A stretch of 55,851 nt of DNA from a virus. The position numbers and the translations under genes were made by a program. Location of the stretch: the IMG/VR virus record IMGVR_UViG_3300020473_000001, positions 1 to 55,851 of that record, one strand, 5' to 3'. Below the pieces are notes generated by a model that was not told the DNA's origin, did no database searches, and saw only the letters and a program-made list of their open reading frames with translations. This document shows, in pieces, positions 12,264 to 25,405 of the stretch; position 1 is the first letter of the stretch; every line of letters begins with the position of its first letter.

Positions 12264-13246
12264 TATTCCTCCCCTTCTAACCAGTGCAACCCAATAATAA
12301 CGCCCCGAATATTTTCACCCATCCACGGGCTCGGGTTTGGGTATGCTGTAAGGTCAAGTTTATCGGCTAAGCCTGAAAGCTTCTGTAACATTGGTAAGGT
12401 GAAGGTTGAACGGTTTTGTATATAGTCACACTCAAACGCTGCACCTTCCTCGTAGTCAATACTATGGGTGCGCATACGTCCAGGTTCGAATACAATGCGA
12501 TTATATTTGTCGGTGAAATCTTTTAACGTATCAAGCCCAGTAAAGAAGCTTTCTGGAATGGGTTGCACTGCGCTATAGTCAACATTGAACACCGGTGCAA
12601 TGTCGGGCCAAGGGTTTGCAATCAATGTGCAACGCAACCAACGCCCGTCACTATAATGCACCGTTAAACTACTATCGGCCATCTGGAAACGTTCAGGCGG
12701 TTCTTTAAGGCGAAGTATCTCCTTAATGGCTAAATGGGGTACGTTTACCTCCACAGGGAACGGGGAACCAAGCCAGTATTCAGCAAGGATTACGTTGTTG
12801 GTTGCGTATGCGGATTGACCACGAAACAGTATGCCGTTACTCCATGGCCTTGCGGCGTCCTGGCCCACTAAAGGCTCAAGCTTTTTAAGGGCTTCAATAA
12901 ATAGTTCGCCATCTATGTCCACGAACTTACCCTCAGGCTCAACATGGGCACTTACATCGTCTGTACAATCAATATAAGAGCGGAATTTGCCGCTTTTAAT
13001 ACTTAGGCGGTTGGTTTTGGTTAGGCCAAGCTGAACGGTTTCCTCACAACGGCTAATAGCCCGCACTAGCGGCGCGGCTTTAGGGTTAGCCTCAACGTTT
13101 AATTCTATGGGTGCTGATAGGGCAATACGCCCGTTGTAACCCTGTATGCGCCCGTTTTCAATGTGAAAGTGTGTAAGGGCTGGTACAAGGTCTTTTTTTG
13201 CCACTGCGCCCTGTACAAAGCGCAGCGTTTTAAGTACGTCTTTCAT
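12263..13246 (-). CDS. Sliding-clamp-like protein (DNA polymerase III beta-type)
   Basis: 327 residues, ATG at 13246 overlapping the dpdA stop (ATGA). The start (LVPALTHFHIENGRIQGYNG) and a run of alternating strands and helices fit a DnaN-like beta clamp, as annotated in several polB-bearing phages; the C-terminus (IRGVIIGLHW) resembles the clamp's last strand. It lies directly upstream of, and is coupled to, the polymerase gene, as expected for a processivity factor. Sequence similarity to bacterial DnaN is weak, so this is a fold-level inference. Confidence 0.6.
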   Translation of the reverse strand: MKDVLKTLRFVQGAVAKKDLVPALTHFHIENGRIQGYNGRIALSAPIELNVEANPKAAPLVRAISRCEETVQLGLTKTNRLSIKSGKFRSYIDCTDDVSAHVEPEGKFVDIDGELFIEALKKLEPLVGQDAARPWSNGILFRGQSAYATNNVILAEYWLGSPFPVEVNVPHLAIKEILRLKEPPERFQMADSSLTVHYSDGRWLRCTLIANPWPDIAPVFNVDYSAVQPIPESFFTGLDTLKDFTDKYNRIVFEPGRMRTHSIDYEEGAAFECDYIQNRSTFTLPMLQKLSGLADKLDLTAYPNPSPWMGENIRGVIIGLHWLEGEE

Positions 13247-14190
13247 GTAAATAAACTCCGTGCTATATTAGCTTTATGGACAATATTCTTTGCGTTAATG
13301 TTGTCCTGGATTTTCATGTAAGCGAGTAGGTTATAGGCGGCACGGCTTTGGTATACCTCGCTTAACCGCTGAGGGTCGAACCCATCAGCCTTTAAGGTTT
13401 CCTCAATGCGTAAGCGCTCGGGTTCAGGTAGGTTAAAAAGGTGCTGATTTAGGTCGTGCAAACTCGGGCTTTTATCGGATATATTAATAGGCCCGAACTC
13501 AGGGTGTACTATTGCACCGAACGAGGTGGCTTGGATCCACGACGAGCTGTCGCAACTGTACCAAGGATATCGCTCCATAAGTGGTATTGAGGTAATACCG
13601 AAACCGTGTACTTTTATGCGCGGGTTGCCGCTACCATCGGTTAAGTAGTCGTTCCACATACGGTCGAGCCAGATTTCTAGCTGTTTAGTGCTAGCCCCTA
13701 CCATACCCCCTAACGTTATATAATCGTATCGCTGTATGTACCATTCCAGGTATCGTTCATCTTCGCCTGCGTGGAAACACGGTAACGGCCTAACACCTAG
13801 ACGCTCCATTTGCATTTGGTTCTCAAAAGTTTCCTGAGGGTCACCAATACCATCTAACACCGAAGCCATTAGGTTCCCGTCTTCGACCCGTATAATATCC
13901 TGGTTCCACTTAATATAATTGACATAATCTTCAACCTTAAGTTTAACCCCAAGCGTGTAGGATGAGAACGCACCGGAATCCAGGAATATTTTAGCATTAT
14001 TGGCCCGCATATAATCGACATATTTTTGTTTGCCAACATAGTGCCAGGATTCTAGTATGTTGTGGTTACGGAACCGTTTTTCCAGCTGCTTTTCATGCTC
14101 ATTGAACTGCGGGTAACGGTCACCACCTTCGATATATTGGTTAGTGTAAACCGCAGCAAGATATACTTGTATTGGGTTAGGTGCTGCCAT
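13243..14190 (-). CDS. dpdA: DpdA-like DNA guanine transglycosylase (7-deazaguanine insertion)
   Basis: 315 residues, ATG at 14190 after GGAG. It is a TGT-like barrel: FLDSGAFSSY (residues 69-78), VLDGIGD (111-117), LGGMVG (160-165), IKVHGFGIT (192-200) and YPWYSCDSSSW (208-218) match phage DpdA proteins often annotated as queuine tRNA-ribosyltransferase. The Cys-rich zinc site of tRNA enzymes is absent. The enzyme would exchange guanine in DNA for a preformed 7-deazaguanine base. It is encoded with a clamp and a polymerase in one overlapping unit, separated from the que genes by one small gene and a terminator, so its timing may follow replication rather than base synthesis. Confidence 0.88.
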   Translation of the reverse strand: MAAPNPIQVYLAAVYTNQYIEGGDRYPQFNEHEKQLEKRFRNHNILESWHYVGKQKYVDYMRANNAKIFLDSGAFSSYTLGVKLKVEDYVNYIKWNQDIIRVEDGNLMASVLDGIGDPQETFENQMQMERLGVRPLPCFHAGEDERYLEWYIQRYDYITLGGMVGASTKQLEIWLDRMWNDYLTDGSGNPRIKVHGFGITSIPLMERYPWYSCDSSSWIQATSFGAIVHPEFGPINISDKSPSLHDLNQHLFNLPEPERLRIEETLKADGFDPQRLSEVYQSRAAYNLLAYMKIQDNINAKNIVHKANIARSLFT

Positions 14191-14675: not shown

Positions 14676-15254
14676 CTATTTGCCTAAATTAAGAAATTCG
14701 GCACGGGTACGACCCTCATCTTTAATTGCACCCTTGAGCGCGGTGGTGACAGTGTGGTGACCCTGCTGGCAAATACCACGGCTTTCCATACACATATGAC
14801 GGGCTTTAATATGCACCCCAACGCCTATCGGGTCCAGGTGTTCTTGCAAAGAGTCTGCAATCTGGTTAGTTAACCGTTCCTGTACTTGTAGACGGCGGGC
14901 GTACATATCAACCAAGCGGCTAAGCTTAGACAGGCCCACAATCTTTCCGTTAGGTATATAAGCAACTGTCGCCGTACCAAAAATGTCAGCCATGTGGTGC
15001 TCACACTTGCTGTAGAAGGGAATATCCACCACTGCAATCATTTGGTCGTAGCCCTCAGCACCATCTTCAAAGGTTTTAAGGATGTCACCAGCGTCCATAT
15101 CGTAACCGCCGAACCAGTGCGCCATTGCCTTAGCTACACGATCTGGAGTTTCAACTAAACCTTCACGCAGTTCCCCATCATTAGGTTCAATTTCGTGTAG
15201 AATTTCACGCACCAAGAATGAGATTGGTTTTTTAGTAGTTGCTTTCGTGTCCAT
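14676..15254 (-). CDS. folE: GTP cyclohydrolase I
   Basis: 192 residues, ATG at 15254 after AAGGA. Zinc ligands are C84 and H87 in KCEHH and C155 in RHMCMESRG; VQERLTNQI (124-132) is the conserved helix of the family. It converts GTP to 7,8-dihydroneopterin triphosphate, the first step to 7-deazaguanines. It is the last gene of the que operon; queD lies two bases upstream. A folate role is possible in principle, but the context makes DNA-base synthesis the evident job. Confidence 0.95.
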   Translation of the reverse strand: MDTKATTKKPISFLVREILHEIEPNDGELREGLVETPDRVAKAMAHWFGGYDMDAGDILKTFEDGAEGYDQMIAVVDIPFYSKCEHHMADIFGTATVAYIPNGKIVGLSKLSRLVDMYARRLQVQERLTNQIADSLQEHLDPIGVGVHIKARHMCMESRGICQQGHHTVTTALKGAIKDEGRTRAEFLNLGK

Positions 15255-15256
15255 TT

Positions 15257-15775
15257 TTAATCCTTAAAGTAGCTGACGCTACATTTACGAGTTTCTTCAA
15301 GTTCGACACCGTACAATTCAACGTCAGTGCCATCAAGCGCAATTGGGCCAACACATTCAACTAAGTGCCAAGCCATATTTTCGGCTGTTGGGTTGAATGG
15401 CAGTTCCACAAAGCTGTCAAGCGCATGGTTTGCATCCTGAATACCAGGAATTAACACTTCATCACCCATGTCAATATGCTCGCATTCAAATGCTTTGATA
15501 ACCGTACCAACAAGTTTATCTTGGTCCCAGTGTAGGAACTTATGATCCCAGTTTTCTTCCAGCCAGTTGCACAGCTTTTCCTTGACCACACTAAAGTCAA
15601 TAACGCGCCCTACACCGTCTAACTCATGTTCAGTTCTCTCCAAACCTTTACGAACTCGGACGTGAAAGTGTACGCGATAGTTATGCCCGTGCAAGTGGCG
15701 GCACTTGCTTTCGTGCCCAACTACACGATGACCAGCGCAAAAATCATGGTAACGAATAACCGTATGTTGGCCCAT
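15257..15775 (-). CDS. queD: 6-carboxytetrahydropterin synthase
   Basis: 172 residues. H16 (CAGHR) and the CRHLHGHNY block (C25 catalytic; H29 and H31 zinc ligands) identify the PTPS/QueD family; FNPTAENMAWHL and VELYGVELEET are the conserved C-terminal elements. It turns dihydroneopterin triphosphate into 6-carboxytetrahydropterin, the QueE substrate. Its ATG overlaps the stop of the upstream 53-codon gene (TAATG). Confidence 0.95.
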   Translation of the reverse strand: MGQHTVIRYHDFCAGHRVVGHESKCRHLHGHNYRVHFHVRVRKGLERTEHELDGVGRVIDFSVVKEKLCNWLEENWDHKFLHWDQDKLVGTVIKAFECEHIDMGDEVLIPGIQDANHALDSFVELPFNPTAENMAWHLVECVGPIALDGTDVELYGVELEETRKCSVSYFKD

Positions 15776-15936
15776 TATTCGTCCTCCATTGGGTTTTCTT
15801 CACCGCTTAGAACCCATGACAGCGCATCGCGCACACCTTCTTCATAAGTCATTCCCGGATATTGGCTTCCACCTTCGTTTGCAACATCAGACGCTTTGTC
15901 CATTGTTTCAGTAATTTCAGACTCAGTAACCAGCAT
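15775..15936 (-). CDS. Small acidic protein inside the que operon, unknown
   Basis: 53 residues (starts MLVTESEITETMDK, ends GEENPMEDE). A perfect AAGGAGG stands before the ATG at 15936, the ATG overlaps the upstream queF-like stop and its own stop overlaps the queD start, both as TAATG. This placement makes translation almost certain. Strongly acidic, no domain recognised; a partner of the neighbouring enzymes is possible but unproven. Confidence 0.75.
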   Translation of the reverse strand: MLVTESEITETMDKASDVANEGGSQYPGMTYEEGVRDALSWVLSGEENPMEDE

Positions 15937-16202
15937 TATAAATCCTCCTTTGTTATTTCAACTCGGTGCTTGTTAAACCACAAGCGAACCACAACTTTAT
16001 CACCACCAACTTCCTGCAGAACTTTCTTGGCAACGTCTTCCATAAACATATTCTTGAACGATGCACATTTTCGAATTTTACGGCGCACTTCGTACAGCTC
16101 CATAAAATCATTAGTATGTACTTCGATAAAGATTGGATCAGGTAAATTGTTAACCGGACAAAAAGTAATAATTGGAATCCAGTGGGTAATTACAGAACGC
16201 AT
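15936..16202 (-). CDS. Divergent unimodular QueF-family protein (QueF-like)
   Basis: 88 residues from the ATG at 16202; the frame is open to 16241 but that start lies deeper in the upstream gene. TFCPVNNLPD (residues 13-22) keeps the QueF catalytic Cys15 and Asp22 with the same seven-residue spacing as Cys55 and Asp62 of B. subtilis QueF. Further on, E38 then FKNMFMED (49-56) aligns with the QueF glutamate and FRNxxxFHED. The NADPH-binding motif E-S-K-S-x-K-x-Y is replaced by EVRRKIRK, and the active-site His by Met54. Loss of this motif with retention of Cys/Asp is what distinguishes the archaeal QueF-L amidinotransferase from the nitrile reductase. It may therefore form an amidino or other preQ0 derivative, bind preQ0, or be a weak reductase. 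Family membership is my alignment by eye. Confidence 0.7.
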   Translation of the reverse strand: MRSVITHWIPIITFCPVNNLPDPIFIEVHTNDFMELYEVRRKIRKCASFKNMFMEDVAKKVLQEVGGDKVVVRLWFNKHRVEITKEDL

Positions 16203-16600
16203 ATAATACAAATTCCTATTGATAGTATTAAACCCCAGCACCAGGATTCGTTAAAAAACTCCCATTCATGGTGAGGGAAATTAAACATTAATTCAGTGTT
16301 AAATGGGTATAAGGGACGCGGAGCCCACTCGTTTCCATGTGTGGGAATGTCAACCACTATATGTAGAAGCCAACCCATAAAGATAGCTAAACCTATATCA
16401 AAGTTGAGCATTATTGCAAACCCACTGAACACCACGCACACTAGCAGGCTGTGCGTGTAGCGATACGCGGGGTTGGGGCGCTGCCTACGCCTTACCCCCA
16501 ACACTAAATCGGGCATAACCCCCGCTACAGCGCCCACAATTGGGTGACCGTACATGCTACCCGCCGCAGCACCTACAACCCCGTGAGTTACGATGTCCAT
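16190..16600 (-). CDS. Membrane protein of the YdjM/DUF457 metal-hydrolase-like family
   Basis: 136 residues from the ATG at 16600 (MDIVTHGVVGA); an ATG 12 bases earlier (16612) is equally possible. Several hydrophobic helices carry the family's histidine motifs: DIVTHGVVG, YRYTHSLL and LLHIVVDIPTH. This matches YdjM-type (DUF457) inner-membrane putative metal-dependent hydrolases. Why it lies between queC and the queF-like gene is unclear; a role in uptake, repair-response interference or membrane tethering is speculation. The stop overlaps the queF-like gene by 13 bases. Confidence 0.7.
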   Translation of the reverse strand: MDIVTHGVVGAAAGSMYGHPIVGAVAGVMPDLVLGVRRRQRPNPAYRYTHSLLVCVVFSGFAIMLNFDIGLAIFMGWLLHIVVDIPTHGNEWAPRPLYPFNTELMFNFPHHEWEFFNESWCWGLILSIGICIICVL

Positions 16601-16764
16601 TCTTGCACCCATTCGATTTTGGGCAGGCTTGCACCCGTCTCACCTGTGCTCCAAACATAGCGGCCGACAAACTCTTTAACACGCATACGCAAAGTTCCTG
16701 AATGCGGGCTGTTAAGATTCATAAGCTTTTTATCATACGGCCCGCCAACACATTGCACCAACAT
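16588..16764 (-). CDS. Small protein inside the que operon, unknown
   Basis: 58 residues, ATG at 16764 preceded by CGGAGCTTAAT, beginning one base after the queC stop. It starts MLVQCVGGPYDKKLM and ends KIEWVQEWTS; a GGPxD start followed by a RYVW element occurs in a class of small phage proteins of unknown function. It overlaps the downstream membrane-protein gene by 13 bases. Confidence 0.7.
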   Translation of the reverse strand: MLVQCVGGPYDKKLMNLNSPHSGTLRMRVKEFVGRYVWSTGETGASLPKIEWVQEWTS

Positions 16765-16765
16765 A

Positions 16766-17488
16766 TTAAGCTCCGTTATCTAAAAATTCTTGCCAACCCT
16801 TAGCGCGTAGCTCACACGCTGGGCACTCACCGCAACCGTAGCCCCATTCATTATAATAATCGGGGCCGTGCTTACCATTATAACAGGTATGAGTTTCATT
16901 CAGTACAATGTCTAAGAAATCATAGTCCTCAGCCATTTTGAAAGTTTGCGCTTTATCCAACCACATAAGAGGGGTTAGAATTGCAATGGTTGAGTTCGAA
17001 CCCAAATTAAGCGCGTCCTCCAATTTACGGATAAATACATCTCGACAATCAGGGTATCCACTGTAGTCGGTTTGGCACACACCAGTCATTAGATACGCCG
17101 CCCCAATTTTTTGGGCAAATGCGTGAGCCATAGTTAAAAAGAAAGCGTTCCGGTTTGGTACAAAACTAGCTGGTAGACCTTCCTTGTTAGTATGCCCTTC
17201 ACCAACATCTTGTTCACTGTTACACAGTAAAGCACTATCGCCAATTTGAATTAGGGCGTTAGTTTCAATGATGTGGTGTTCAACATTGTGCGCTTCACAT
17301 ATACTGGCGGCACTGTTTAATTCGACGCTGTGCTTTTGCCCGTAACTGAACGACACAGCTACAACCGTTTTAAAATGCTGCAAGGCCAAGCCAAGGCAAG
17401 TAACTGAATCTTGCCCGCCGGACAGCACTATCACGCAAGTGTGGTTACTGGCATCATCAGGGAGGTTTACTAATGGGTTAGGTTTCAT
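16766..17488 (-). CDS. queC: 7-cyano-7-deazaguanine (preQ0) synthase
   Basis: 240 residues, ATG at 17488 after GGAG. The PP-loop LSGGQDS is at 22-28 and the four zinc cysteines are C202, C219, C222 and C225 (CGECPAC). It converts 7-carboxy-7-deazaguanine to preQ0 with ATP and ammonia. The length is that of a stand-alone QueC: no N-terminal amidotransferase (Gat) domain is fused, unlike the Gat-QueC of phages that make deoxyarchaeosine. It ends four bases after the queE stop. Confidence 0.95.
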   Translation of the reverse strand: MKPNPLVNLPDDASNHTCVIVLSGGQDSVTCLGLALQHFKTVVAVSFSYGQKHSVELNSAASICEAHNVEHHIIETNALIQIGDSALLCNSEQDVGEGHTNKEGLPASFVPNRNAFFLTMAHAFAQKIGAAYLMTGVCQTDYSGYPDCRDVFIRKLEDALNLGSNSTIAILTPLMWLDKAQTFKMAEDYDFLDIVLNETHTCYNGKHGPDYYNEWGYGCGECPACELRAKGWQEFLDNGA

Positions 17489-17491
17489 GGT

Positions 17492-18193
17492 TTACTCCAT
17501 ATTAATGATTTTATGAACTTGCAGACATAGCGTGTAACCATGCAGCATACAAGAACGGATTGCGGCGTCAAGGTGTAAGTTATTAACCTCTTCGTCTTTG
17601 CTGTCCATAGGTTGGACATAAATTGGCCCAGTGTAATAACTAGGTGGTCTGGCAATTTTGCCAGCTTTTAAATCAAGTACACGCGAGGGTAAGCCGTCTT
17701 CAACGTCAATGTGTAGGTAACTGACCACATACTTAAACGCGGTTACATGCTCAGCCAATCCCTTATCCAACTTGCGGCTTTTTGGTGAGCAAATAATGTC
17801 AACGTTACCGTTACCCACGTACCAAGTGTCGAAAGTTGGTGGCAACGTGCCGTTAGTTTCAAATTGAATATGGAAATCTTGGCTTACCAAAAGCTCAACC
17901 AGTTCACCTAAGTGTTGGCGAAAAGGTTCACCCCCTGTAATCACAACAAGGTTAGTTGAACATTTCAACTCCTTAACCTTGTCAACTATATACTGAGGTT
18001 TGACTTTCTTTGCTCCCTGCGTGTATTCAGTGTCGCAAGCTGGGCAGGCAAGATTACAATGGGCTAGGCGAACGAAAATCGCTGGTCGCCCTGCGTGCGG
18101 CCCTTCACCTTGCATAGTAAGGAAGATTGAGTGTAGTTCGATAGTGCCGTCATAAATATGTGATTTATCGGGCGTTGGTCTTTGTAAGTTCAT
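17492..18193 (-). CDS. queE: 7-carboxy-7-deazaguanine synthase (radical SAM)
   Basis: 233 residues from the ATG at 18193, chosen because AAGGGA stands upstream; the open frame extends 66 bases more but without homology. CNLACPAC (C46, C50, C53) is the CxxxCxxC cluster site of QueE, ITGGEP the radical-SAM GGE motif, and SIFLTMQGEGPHAG the substrate-binding start. It makes CDG from 6-carboxytetrahydropterin. First gene of the que operon. Confidence 0.95.
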   Translation of the reverse strand: MNLQRPTPDKSHIYDGTIELHSIFLTMQGEGPHAGRPAIFVRLAHCNLACPACDTEYTQGAKKVKPQYIVDKVKELKCSTNLVVITGGEPFRQHLGELVELLVSQDFHIQFETNGTLPPTFDTWYVGNGNVDIICSPKSRKLDKGLAEHVTAFKYVVSYLHIDVEDGLPSRVLDLKAGKIARPPSYYTGPIYVQPMDSKDEEVNNLHLDAAIRSCMLHGYTLCLQVHKIINME

Positions 18194-18235
18194 TTTAATC
18201 CCTTGGGTTAAAAATGCTGAAAGGGTGTAACAGCT

Positions 18236-18285
18236 TAATAAAAACCCCCGCCTAGGCAAAATGGGACTTCAGTACAAGGCGGGGG
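18236..18285 (-). terminator. Intrinsic terminator before the que operon
   Basis: Read leftward, CCCCCGCCT (18285-18277) and AGGCGGGGG (18253-18245) form a nine-base stem around a 23-base loop, followed by TTTTTATT. It ends the three-paralogue unit starting near 20192. The que operon therefore needs its own promoter in 18194-18240, where I see no clear -35/-10 pair. Confidence 0.8.
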
Positions 18286-23858: not shown

Positions 23859-24641
23859 TTATTGGCCCTGCATCCATGGAGCTTGACCGTTTTGGGCTGC
23901 TTGTTGCCCAGCTTGGTCGGTGCTTTGCTGTTGCTGCTGTAGCTCAGGCGCTGGCCCTTGTTGCTGCTGGCCCTGTGCTTGCCCCTGCTGCCCTACCTGC
24001 TGTTGCTGGGCTTGTGGGTTAGCATTTTGCCAACCGCCTTGCTGCTGGCCCTGTGCTTGGCCCTGTGGGGCGGCTTGCTGTTGCTGCTGTTGTTGCTGCT
24101 GTTGTTGTGGGGCAAAGTTACCCTGCTGCTGTTGCATGTTCATCTGTTGTTGCTGTGGGGCGGCTTGCTGTTGCTGTTGCTGTGGAGCGAAACCGCCACC
24201 CTGCGGGCCTTGCGGTGCTGGTTGGCCTGCACCTACTTGGCCTTCAGCGGTACGGTAGCCTTTCACTTCGTTACTAGGCTCTGGATAATCATCAGTTGGT
24301 TTGGTTAAACCCACCTTAACATCAAGGGGCAAGTTGTGAAGTTGTTGGCTATCTTGTAGCTGTAGCACGCCGACCGCGTGGCAGATAGCTGATAGCGTAT
24401 TGTTTGCAATTTCTACCGCAGTTGGGTTCGGGTTGTTAATGTTCAAACGGTCCCAAATCTTACGGCCCGCGTACTGCTGCGGTGCAATAATTTCGATAGT
24501 TAGCTCAAGGTACGAACCTGTGCCAGCCTTTGTCGGCTTAAGCTCTGAGTCTGTGATTTTACCTGTGTACCAACCTGGAACAAGGTTCTCAAATGCTTGT
24601 TGCGGTTCGTGCTCTTGGGCGTTGAAATTTAATCCAGCCAT
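23859..24641 (-). CDS. DUF669-type single-strand-binding-like protein with long glutamine-rich tail
   Basis: 260 residues. Residues 1-130 form the DUF669 core (LVPGWYTGKITDSELK, GSYLELTIEI, GRKIWDRLNI), proposed to act as SSB in Sak4 systems. From about residue 140 the chain is mostly Gln with Gly, Pro and Ala, ending in PWMQGQ, which mimics the short hydrophobic tip that bacterial SSB uses to recruit partners. The poly-Q stretch (longest run ten) is unusual for a phage and would be prone to length changes. It lies directly after the Sak4-like ATPase gene. Confidence 0.8.
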   Translation of the reverse strand: MAGLNFNAQEHEPQQAFENLVPGWYTGKITDSELKPTKAGTGSYLELTIEIIAPQQYAGRKIWDRLNINNPNPTAVEIANNTLSAICHAVGVLQLQDSQQLHNLPLDVKVGLTKPTDDYPEPSNEVKGYRTAEGQVGAGQPAPQGPQGGGFAPQQQQQQAAPQQQQMNMQQQQGNFAPQQQQQQQQQQQAAPQGQAQGQQQGGWQNANPQAQQQQVGQQGQAQGQQQQGPAPELQQQQQSTDQAGQQAAQNGQAPWMQGQ

Positions 24642-24667: not shown

Positions 24668-25405
24668 TTAAGATTGTTGGGCTTGTTGGCCCATAATTTT
24701 CTGAATGACGTGACCAATGTGTGGGAATTCAACCTCATCTAACATGCCGCTACGGTCTTTTGCATCGGCACTAAAATCAGGCTGAGTGCGCAACCCACGG
24801 TAGGTCGTACCATCAGGGTTCTTACCGATAAAGATTTGGAAAACCTCATCGGTTAGATACGGAGTTGCAGGACCCATTTTTTGTCCTGGCAGTGAAGGCC
24901 CAGCTAAGGTGAGACCAGTGCCTTCATCCTTTTGCCGTTCCTCTTTAAAATTAAGCAGTACATGTCGCCCTTCCAGGTCGCGGAACTCTTTAATGGTTTT
25001 GGTCATTTTGTCAATGAGCTCACCATACGCCTGACGTGGGTCTTTTACTTGCCGCTTGGCGTTCGCTAACACTTGCTCAGCAATTTCGGTCGCTGAGTCA
25101 AGTACGGGGTTGAAGCGTTGCCCGTTCGGGTCGGTACGCAAATACACTTCAGCGTCCACCAAGTCTTGAACATTGCGAATTTGGATTACTGGAATGTCGT
25201 ATGCAATGCTGGGGTTATCAACGCCCCAAATACGCTCCAGGTTTTCCTTTTTGAGTGAAAGCAAGCCGGACTCTGCGCTCAAAATAACGGGGTTAGGCAT
25301 GGTAGCCGCTAGCACAGTCTTACCCATGCCAGAACGACCATATACGCACATTTTAACGCCGTTACCTATCGCGAGTTGGTTACTTGATACAAGTTGAACA
25401 GCCAT
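24668..25405 (-). CDS. Sak4-like RecA-type ATPase (recombinase)
   Basis: 245 residues. Walker A GRSGMGKT (23-30), Walker B region VLDSATE (101-107), overall AAA_24/Sak4 layout. Sak4 proteins promote single-strand annealing together with an SSB-like partner; the adjacent DUF669 gene fits. AAAGG precedes the ATG. Confidence 0.88.
   Translation of the reverse strand: MAVQLVSSNQLAIGNGVKMCVYGRSGMGKTVLAATMPNPVILSAESGLLSLKKENLERIWGVDNPSIAYDIPVIQIRNVQDLVDAEVYLRTDPNGQRFNPVLDSATEIAEQVLANAKRQVKDPRQAYGELIDKMTKTIKEFRDLEGRHVLLNFKEERQKDEGTGLTLAGPSLPGQKMGPATPYLTDEVFQIFIGKNPDGTTYRGLRTQPDFSADAKDRSGMLDEVEFPHIGHVIQKIMGQQAQQS

What the first reader, a model, noticed from the sequence alone, without database searches (positions are those of the whole stretch)
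15936..16202. A very short, divergent QueF-family protein inside the phage preQ0 operon
Seen: TFCPVNNLPD keeps Cys and Asp at the same spacing as the QueF active site, and FKNMFMED parallels FRNxxxFHED; the NADPH motif ESKSxKxY is replaced by EVRRKIRK and the active-site His by Met. Known: QueF reduces preQ0 to preQ1, while archaeal QueF-L lacks the NADPH motif and makes archaeosine. Inference: with QueF motif lost and no Gat-QueC, this 88-residue protein may provide a different route to an amidinated or otherwise altered base in phage DNA, or simply bind preQ0.
Basis: partly seen in the sequence, partly recalled or inferred. Interest (0 to 1): 0.85.

Follow-up and report, generated by a model that had tools for sequence, protein, structure and literature searches.

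The report
Minimal QueF-like enzyme in phage operon
A virus of bacteria carries a very small relative of the enzymes that rework the modified base preQ0, and it probably helps the virus decorate its DNA with archaeosine (or a related base) against bacterial defences; a sister protein was named before, but the reaction has never been tested.

Summary
Window 15936-16202 encodes an 88-residue T-fold protein in a folE-queD-queE-queC-dpdA phage operon. The protein alone has no Pfam or PDB sequence hit, but I found relatives in 18 further phage loci (18 distinct sequences in all). Cys15, Asp22 and Glu55 are invariant in 18/18 and align with QueF Cys55/Asp62/Glu97. Profile comparison with QueF/QueF-L scores 44.6, against at most 18.9 for shuffles, 17.4 for FolE and 12.4 for QueD. 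AlphaFold2 (pLDDT 90) gives a T-fold whose best PDB matches are archaeal QueF-L. The NADPH motif is degraded and the active-site His is Met in every member. No Gat domain or ArcS was found in the record. Best explanation: a minimal QueF-L-type enzyme that forms a thioimide with preQ0, probably in DNA, and resolves it with ammonia to deoxyarchaeosine. Family assignment is strong; the product is inferred. The idea is not new: MMDA13 Gp33 was called QueF-L in 2020. New here are the family's extent, the invariant Met, and a YdjM-like metal-hydrolase gene directly upstream in 18 of 19 loci, seen elsewhere among 50,697 phage records only in MMDA13.

The parts
15936..16202 (-). Short T-fold QueF/QueF-L-like protein, 88 aa; C15 at 16158-16160, D22 at 16137-16139, E35 at 16098-16100, M54 at 16041-16043, E55 at 16038-16040
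   Evidence: ORF; family alignment; profile comparison with QueF; AlphaFold2 and Foldseek
16190..16612 (-). YdjM-like (PF04307) membrane metal-hydrolase-like protein, 140 aa, overlapping the T-fold gene; linked to it in 18 of 19 loci
   Evidence: Pfam E 8.8e-08; linkage
16766..17488 (-). queC, canonical, 240 aa, no glutamine amidotransferase domain
   Evidence: PF06508 E 6.8e-75, no GATase hit
17492..18259 (-). queE, radical SAM 7-carboxy-7-deazaguanine synthase (ORF listed from a TTG; the first ATG gives 233 aa)
   Evidence: phrog_2076 E 1.7e-49
15257..15775 (-). queD, 6-carboxytetrahydropterin synthase-like
   Evidence: PF01242 and phrog_2389
14676..15254 (-). folE, GTP cyclohydrolase I
   Evidence: PF01227 E 3.6e-65
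13243..14190 (-). dpdA, base transglycosylase predicted to put the preQ0-derived base into DNA
   Evidence: phrog_887 E 8e-79
15775..15936 (-). 53-aa ORF between the T-fold gene and queD, unknown function
   Evidence: phrog_6680 E 3.7e-09

Best explanation
The ORF is a minimal single-domain T-fold enzyme of the QueF/QueF-L superfamily, probably working like archaeal QueF-L and not like the NADPH-dependent reductase QueF. Shown here: the predicted fold; homology to QueF/QueF-L; invariant Cys15, Asp22 and Glu55 aligned with the catalytic Cys, Asp and preQ0-anchoring Glu; loss of most of the NADPH motif; a place in a complete preQ0 + DpdA operon with no detectable Gat-QueC or ArcS. Inferred: FolE, QueD, QueE and QueC make preQ0, DpdA swaps it into phage DNA, and this protein, as a T-fold oligomer, binds preQ0 through Glu55 and forms a thioimide on Cys15 with Asp22 as acid/base. 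Ammonia, not hydride, then resolves the thioimide, giving 2'-deoxyarchaeosine (dG+). Whether it acts on free preQ0 or on the base already in DNA is unknown; the QueF-L precedent favours the nucleic-acid-bound form.
For: Family profile against QueF+QueF-L: prob 92.6, score 44.6; shuffles at most 18.9, FolE 17.4, QueD 12.4. AlphaFold2 pLDDT 90, T-fold; best PDB matches QueF-L 5k0p/5jyx, TMq up to 0.73. C15, D22, E55 invariant in 18/18. A divergent member, L037, by itself hits the QueF PHROG phrog_5949 at E 2.5e-6. NADPH motif and the RGG segment of QueF absent. All 17 complete QueCs in T-fold operons lack Gat; no GATase_7 or DUF5591 (ArcS-type) in the record. Dp-1 and HVTV-1, whose QueF homologues accompany dPreQ1 (PMC6884629): Dp-1 and the HVTV-1-like HCTV-5 keep the full motif. 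QueF-L shares the Cys/Asp thioimide chemistry and uses ammonia (PMC5485725).
Against: The product has not been measured in any phage of this group. The active-site His kept in QueF and QueF-L is Met here. Glu at the motif position (E35) and a basic residue (R40) are kept, which QueF-L lacks or has differently, so a remnant cofactor role is not excluded. Earlier phage 'QueF-L' calls turned out to accompany dPreQ1. The almost obligatory YdjM-like partner is unexplained.
Confidence: 0.55

Rival explanations
1. Together with the YdjM-like hydrolase it makes a different, undescribed 7-deazaguanine: the thioimide is attacked by a nucleophile other than ammonia, or the hydrolase alters the product or feeds it an amine.
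For: YdjM-like gene directly upstream in 18 of 19 loci; a scan with YdjM alone recovered five further loci, each with the T-fold gene beside it. The Met in place of His is invariant and specific to this family.
Against: One locus (L047) has the T-fold gene without a YdjM gene on its 6.4-kb contig. Linkage does not show a joint reaction; the hydrolase could act elsewhere.
Confidence: 0.15
2. It is still a nitrile reductase and yields dPreQ1 with NADPH bound in another way.
For: The two phage QueF/QueF-L candidates with measured DNA accompany dPreQ1. E35 and R40 line up with Glu78 and the second Lys of the NADPH motif. The His is not universal in phage QueFs: Cys in Mufasa8 and Funsized, Gln in phi38:2.
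Against: The first motif Lys and the aromatic position are gone in the whole family, as is the RGG segment.
Confidence: 0.12
3. It is a nitrile hydratase: water resolves the thioimide and the DNA base is dADG (7-amido-7-deazaguanine).
For: dADG occurs in phages whose enzyme was not identified in the papers read. The chemistry from a thioimide is plausible.
Against: Salmonella 7-11 and Pantoea MED16, which have dADG, did not come up in the family search of the phage collection. No sequence feature points to water as nucleophile.
Confidence: 0.08
4. It is a non-catalytic preQ0-binding or regulatory protein, for example a carrier to DpdA or a subunit of another T-fold enzyme of the operon.
For: Very small; active-site His lost; sits among the pathway genes.
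Against: Cys15 and Asp22, needed for chemistry and not for binding, are invariant in 18/18. Related Vibrio operons manage without it.
Confidence: 0.08

Closest known systems
Sphingomonas phage vB_StuS_MMDA13 Gp33 (QHB80466.1, 'putative archeosine synthase QueF-like protein')
   Same: Same family: about 44-50% identity, same operon place after a YdjM-like gene, same invariant residues, Gat-less QueC
   Different: 8-residue insertion before E35; different host; its QueF-L call rests on HHpred at 91% (PMC7472734), not on an assay
Archaeal QueF-L, Pyrobaculum calidifontis (PDB 5jyx, 5k0p)
   Same: Best structural match; Cys-x6-Asp; anchoring Glu; no intact NADPH motif; no RGG; similar size, 109 aa
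   Different: QueF-L keeps His62 (Met here) and has Ala where this family has E35; acts on tRNA; about 15-18% identity
Unimodular QueF, Bacillus subtilis (4f8b), and phage QueFs (Dp-1, HCTV-5, phi38:2)
   Same: Cys, Asp, Glu triad at matching positions; Glu of the motif kept; CPxxxxPD
   Different: QueF has the full NADPH motif, the RGG segment and an N-terminal extension, and (in most) the His
Gat-QueC archaeosine synthase (phages 9g, Vid5, R31B)
   Same: Would serve the same step, preQ0 to G+, in similar operons
   Different: Non-homologous: a glutamine amidotransferase domain fused to QueC; all 17 complete QueCs of the T-fold operons lack it

Membership tests
T-fold superfamily, QueF/QueF-L branch | T-fold order of elements and structural match to QueF/QueF-L | tested here: met
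   AlphaFold2 pLDDT 90; strands, two helices, two strands; QueF-L is the top PDB match. GTP cyclohydrolase I, the same fold, is close behind.
T-fold superfamily, QueF/QueF-L branch | Profile homology to QueF/QueF-L above other T-fold families | tested here: met
   Score 44.6 against FolE 17.4, QueD 12.4, shuffles at most 18.9
QueF (nitrile reductase) | Catalytic Cys55, Asp62 and anchoring Glu97 | tested here: met
   C15, D22, E55, invariant in 18/18 and aligned; definition from PMC5372742
QueF (nitrile reductase) | NADPH motif E(S/L)K(S/A)hK(L/Y)(Y/F/W) | tested here: not met
   ELYEVRRK in the window: Glu, Leu, hydrophobic and a basic residue kept, the first Lys and the last two positions lost
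QueF-L (archaeosine synthase) | Conserved Cys and Asp of thioimide formation without an intact NADPH motif | tested here: met
QueF-L (archaeosine synthase) | His next to the anchoring Glu (present in 5jyx; only one archaeal sequence was available, so its conservation in QueF-L is not established here) | tested here: inconclusive
   Met54 in all 18 members; His62 in 5jyx; His also absent in some phage QueFs
QueF-L (archaeosine synthase) | Conversion of preQ0 in nucleic acid to archaeosine with ammonia | not testable with these tools
   Needs an assay
QueF-L (archaeosine synthase) | Decamer with active sites at subunit interfaces | not testable with these tools
   Only monomers could be modelled
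Gat-QueC archaeosine synthase | Glutamine amidotransferase domain fused to QueC | tested here: not met
   Window QueC is 240 aa without GATase; no GATase_7 in the record
ArcS archaeosine synthase | ArcS-type domain (DUF5591, PF17884) in the record | tested here: not met
   No match

The most novel reading that the evidence does not exclude
A two-gene cassette (a YdjM-family membrane metal-hydrolase plus a minimal QueF-like T-fold with Met in place of the active-site His), found next to queC in diverse phages, makes a 7-deazaguanine DNA base not yet described, or uses the hydrolase to deliver ammonia or another amine to the thioimide.
Probability: 0.15. Interest if true: 0.8.

Novelty: new variant of a known kind. 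Interest (0 to 1): 0.5.

Why it matters
In the papers I could read, no phage QueF-L has been shown to make deoxyarchaeosine: the two phage QueF-L candidates with measured DNA (Dp-1, HVTV-1) accompany dPreQ1. This family lacks the NADPH motif, so it is a cleaner test of whether phages use the QueF-L route, and it shows how small a T-fold of this branch can be. The YdjM link adds a specific, testable partner. An answer would tell which base protects MMDA13-like phages from restriction.

Tried and rejected
Direct Pfam, NCBIfam and PHROG searches with the window protein gave nothing usable; weak hits to phrog_4422 (0.011) and NF009974 (0.053) were taken as chance. PDB sequence search with the 2- and 7-member profiles gave only chance hits; with 11 members QueF-L came second, but at E 1.2. 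Viral hit L002 was rejected: a virion protein sharing QEVGGDKV. L018 is L008 again, a phage contig in a Verrucomicrobiales MAG. Small ORFs near queC in RHph_X3_2 and R31B do not carry the T-fold motifs. A chance match of motifs was rejected by shuffles and family conservation. The first AlphaFold2 model (6 sequences, pLDDT 79) was superseded by the 11-sequence model. The 2023 paper on further phage 7-deazaguanines (DpdL, DpdM, DpdN) is known to me from memory only; a look-up by the DOI I recalled found no held paper, so DpdL could not be compared.

Full report
WHAT IS THERE. The coordinates hold a minus-strand ORF of 88 codons (15936-16202 with stop). It overlaps the end of an upstream gene by 13 bases and has a plausible ribosome-binding site. 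The record is a 55,851-base virus contig with terminase, portal, capsid, tail, primase, DNA polymerase and ligase genes. The operon, read on the minus strand, is queE, queC, a 58-aa ORF, a YdjM-like gene, the ORF, a 53-aa ORF, queD, folE, a 111-aa ORF, dpdA, clamp, DNA polymerase.

RELATIVES. The protein has no usable single-sequence family hit. tblastn against 50,697 phage records finds only Sphingomonas phage MMDA13 Gp33 (two records of one phage), annotated as a putative archaeosine synthase. Pattern scans of IMG/VR with growing alignments, plus a scan with the neighbouring YdjM-like protein, gave 19 loci in all, window included, and 18 distinct T-fold sequences (L045 and L046 carry the same one). 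Twelve positions are invariant: W8, P10, T13, C15, P16, D22, E35, R40, M54, E55, L74, V81. BFVD holds a 100% identical 88-aa entry (A0A516LEE5) and a 44% relative named archaeosine synthase (A0A8S5S4R5), so the name already exists in annotation.

FAMILY. Profile-profile comparison of 11 members with eleven QueFs plus QueF-L gives prob 92.6 and score 44.6. The alignment pairs C15, D22, E35, R40, M54 and E55 with B. subtilis Cys55, Asp62, Glu78, the second motif Lys, His96 and Glu97. Controls: 400 column shuffles reach at most 18.9, FolE 17.4, QueD 12.4, reversed QueF 8.7. Against QueF-L alone, a single sequence, the score is 28.8. The divergent member L037 (CPHSVLPD...EIYRARKIIHSYRGKRLYMED) matches phrog_5949 by itself at E 2.5e-6; known phage QueFs match that PHROG at 1e-17 to 1e-62, though its label is 'GTP cyclohydrolase'. 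AlphaFold2 with 11 members gives pLDDT 90 and pTM 0.80. Foldseek puts archaeal QueF-L first, with TMq up to 0.73; the weaker 6-member model gave the same first place. GTP cyclohydrolase I is close behind, as expected for one fold, so the structure alone does not separate the branches; the profile does.

QUEF OR QUEF-L. PMC5372742 defines QueF by Cys55, Asp62, Glu97 and the NADPH motif including Glu78. The family keeps the first three and the motif Glu, but loses the first Lys and the aromatic position of the motif, the RGG segment and the His. QueF-L also lacks an intact motif and RGG, but keeps His62 and has Ala at the motif Glu. So the family is neither a textbook QueF nor identical to the one QueF-L of known structure. 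The His is not decisive: phage QueF relatives have Cys (Mufasa8, Funsized) or Gln (phi38:2) there. In phages with measured DNA, the QueF homologues of Dp-1 and HVTV-1 accompany dPreQ1 (PMC6884629); Dp-1 and the HVTV-1-like HCTV-5 keep the full motif. That makes reduction less likely here and amidination more likely, by inference.

CONTEXT. Related operons come in three forms: QueC alone (Vibrio ALK, AQKL99), Gat-QueC (Vibrio R31B), and Gat-less QueC plus this T-fold. All 17 complete QueCs in T-fold operons lack a Gat domain. Neither GATase_7 nor the ArcS-type DUF5591 is found in the window record, with the caveat that a virus record may be a fragment. This fits replacement of Gat-QueC by a separate archaeosine synthase, which the MMDA13 paper proposed in 2020 (PMC7472734).

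THE UNEXPECTED PARTNER. A YdjM-like (PF04307) protein with conserved His/Asp residues lies immediately upstream in 18 of 19 loci, usually overlapping. tblastn with it, and with its divergent L037 relative, finds only MMDA13 among 50,697 phage records, apart from one non-significant match. A scan with YdjM alone found five loci not seen before; each has the T-fold gene next to it. L037 has a different gene order and a divergent DpdA (23% identity) and still has the pair. L047 is the exception: dpdA, T-fold, queC without YdjM on a 6.4-kb contig. In the held library I found no paper that links YdjM to 7-deazaguanines. QueF-L takes only free ammonium (PMC5485725), so an ammonia-releasing hydrolase would be a tidy partner, but that is speculation.

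MECHANISM AND VERDICT. Shown: predicted fold, family, invariant catalytic set, operon, linkage. Inferred: thioimide at Cys15, Asp22 as acid/base, Glu55 as anchor, ammonia as nucleophile, product dG+ in DNA. I put QueF/QueF-L family membership at about 0.93 and the dG+ mechanism at 0.55. It is a new variant of a known kind: the naming is not new, the function is untested, and the YdjM pairing is the least explained part.

Noticed in passing
window 16190-16612 (-), and L003, L008-L012, L032-L034, L037, L039, L042, L044-L046, L048, L049: A YdjM-like metal-hydrolase gene sits directly upstream of the T-fold gene in 18 of 19 loci, usually overlapping; a search with YdjM alone recovers new loci that all have the T-fold gene.
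   Followed up: partly
L047:451-1448 (+): The one exception: the T-fold gene lies between dpdA and queC with no YdjM-like gene on the 6.4-kb contig.
   Followed up: partly
L009:2111-3094, L010:6462-7625, L037:6166-7014, L003:8746-9633 (+): FolE in several relatives carries an N-terminal extension that looks like a phosphoribosyltransferase domain (weak Pfam hits in L003 and L010); the window FolE lacks it.
   Followed up: no
window 14676-15254 (-): FolE itself matches QueF models (PF14489, QueF-II TIGR03139 at 4.9e-09), a warning that QueF-family hits in such operons can be FolE.
   Followed up: no
window 16588-16764 (-): A 58-aa ORF between queC and the YdjM-like gene has relatives beside queC in L005, L006 and L013; phrog_12090, function unknown.
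   Followed up: no
window 23859-24641 (-): ORF whose C-terminal half is almost wholly glutamine-rich repeats, next to a Sak4-like annealing protein gene at 24668-25405.
   Followed up: no
L022:289-696, L023:250-648, L025:4872-5273: Phage QueF homologues of Arthrobacter phage Mufasa8, Mycobacterium phage Funsized and Cellulophaga phage phi38:2 lack the active-site His (Cys, Cys, Gln) although they keep most of the NADPH motif.
   Followed up: no
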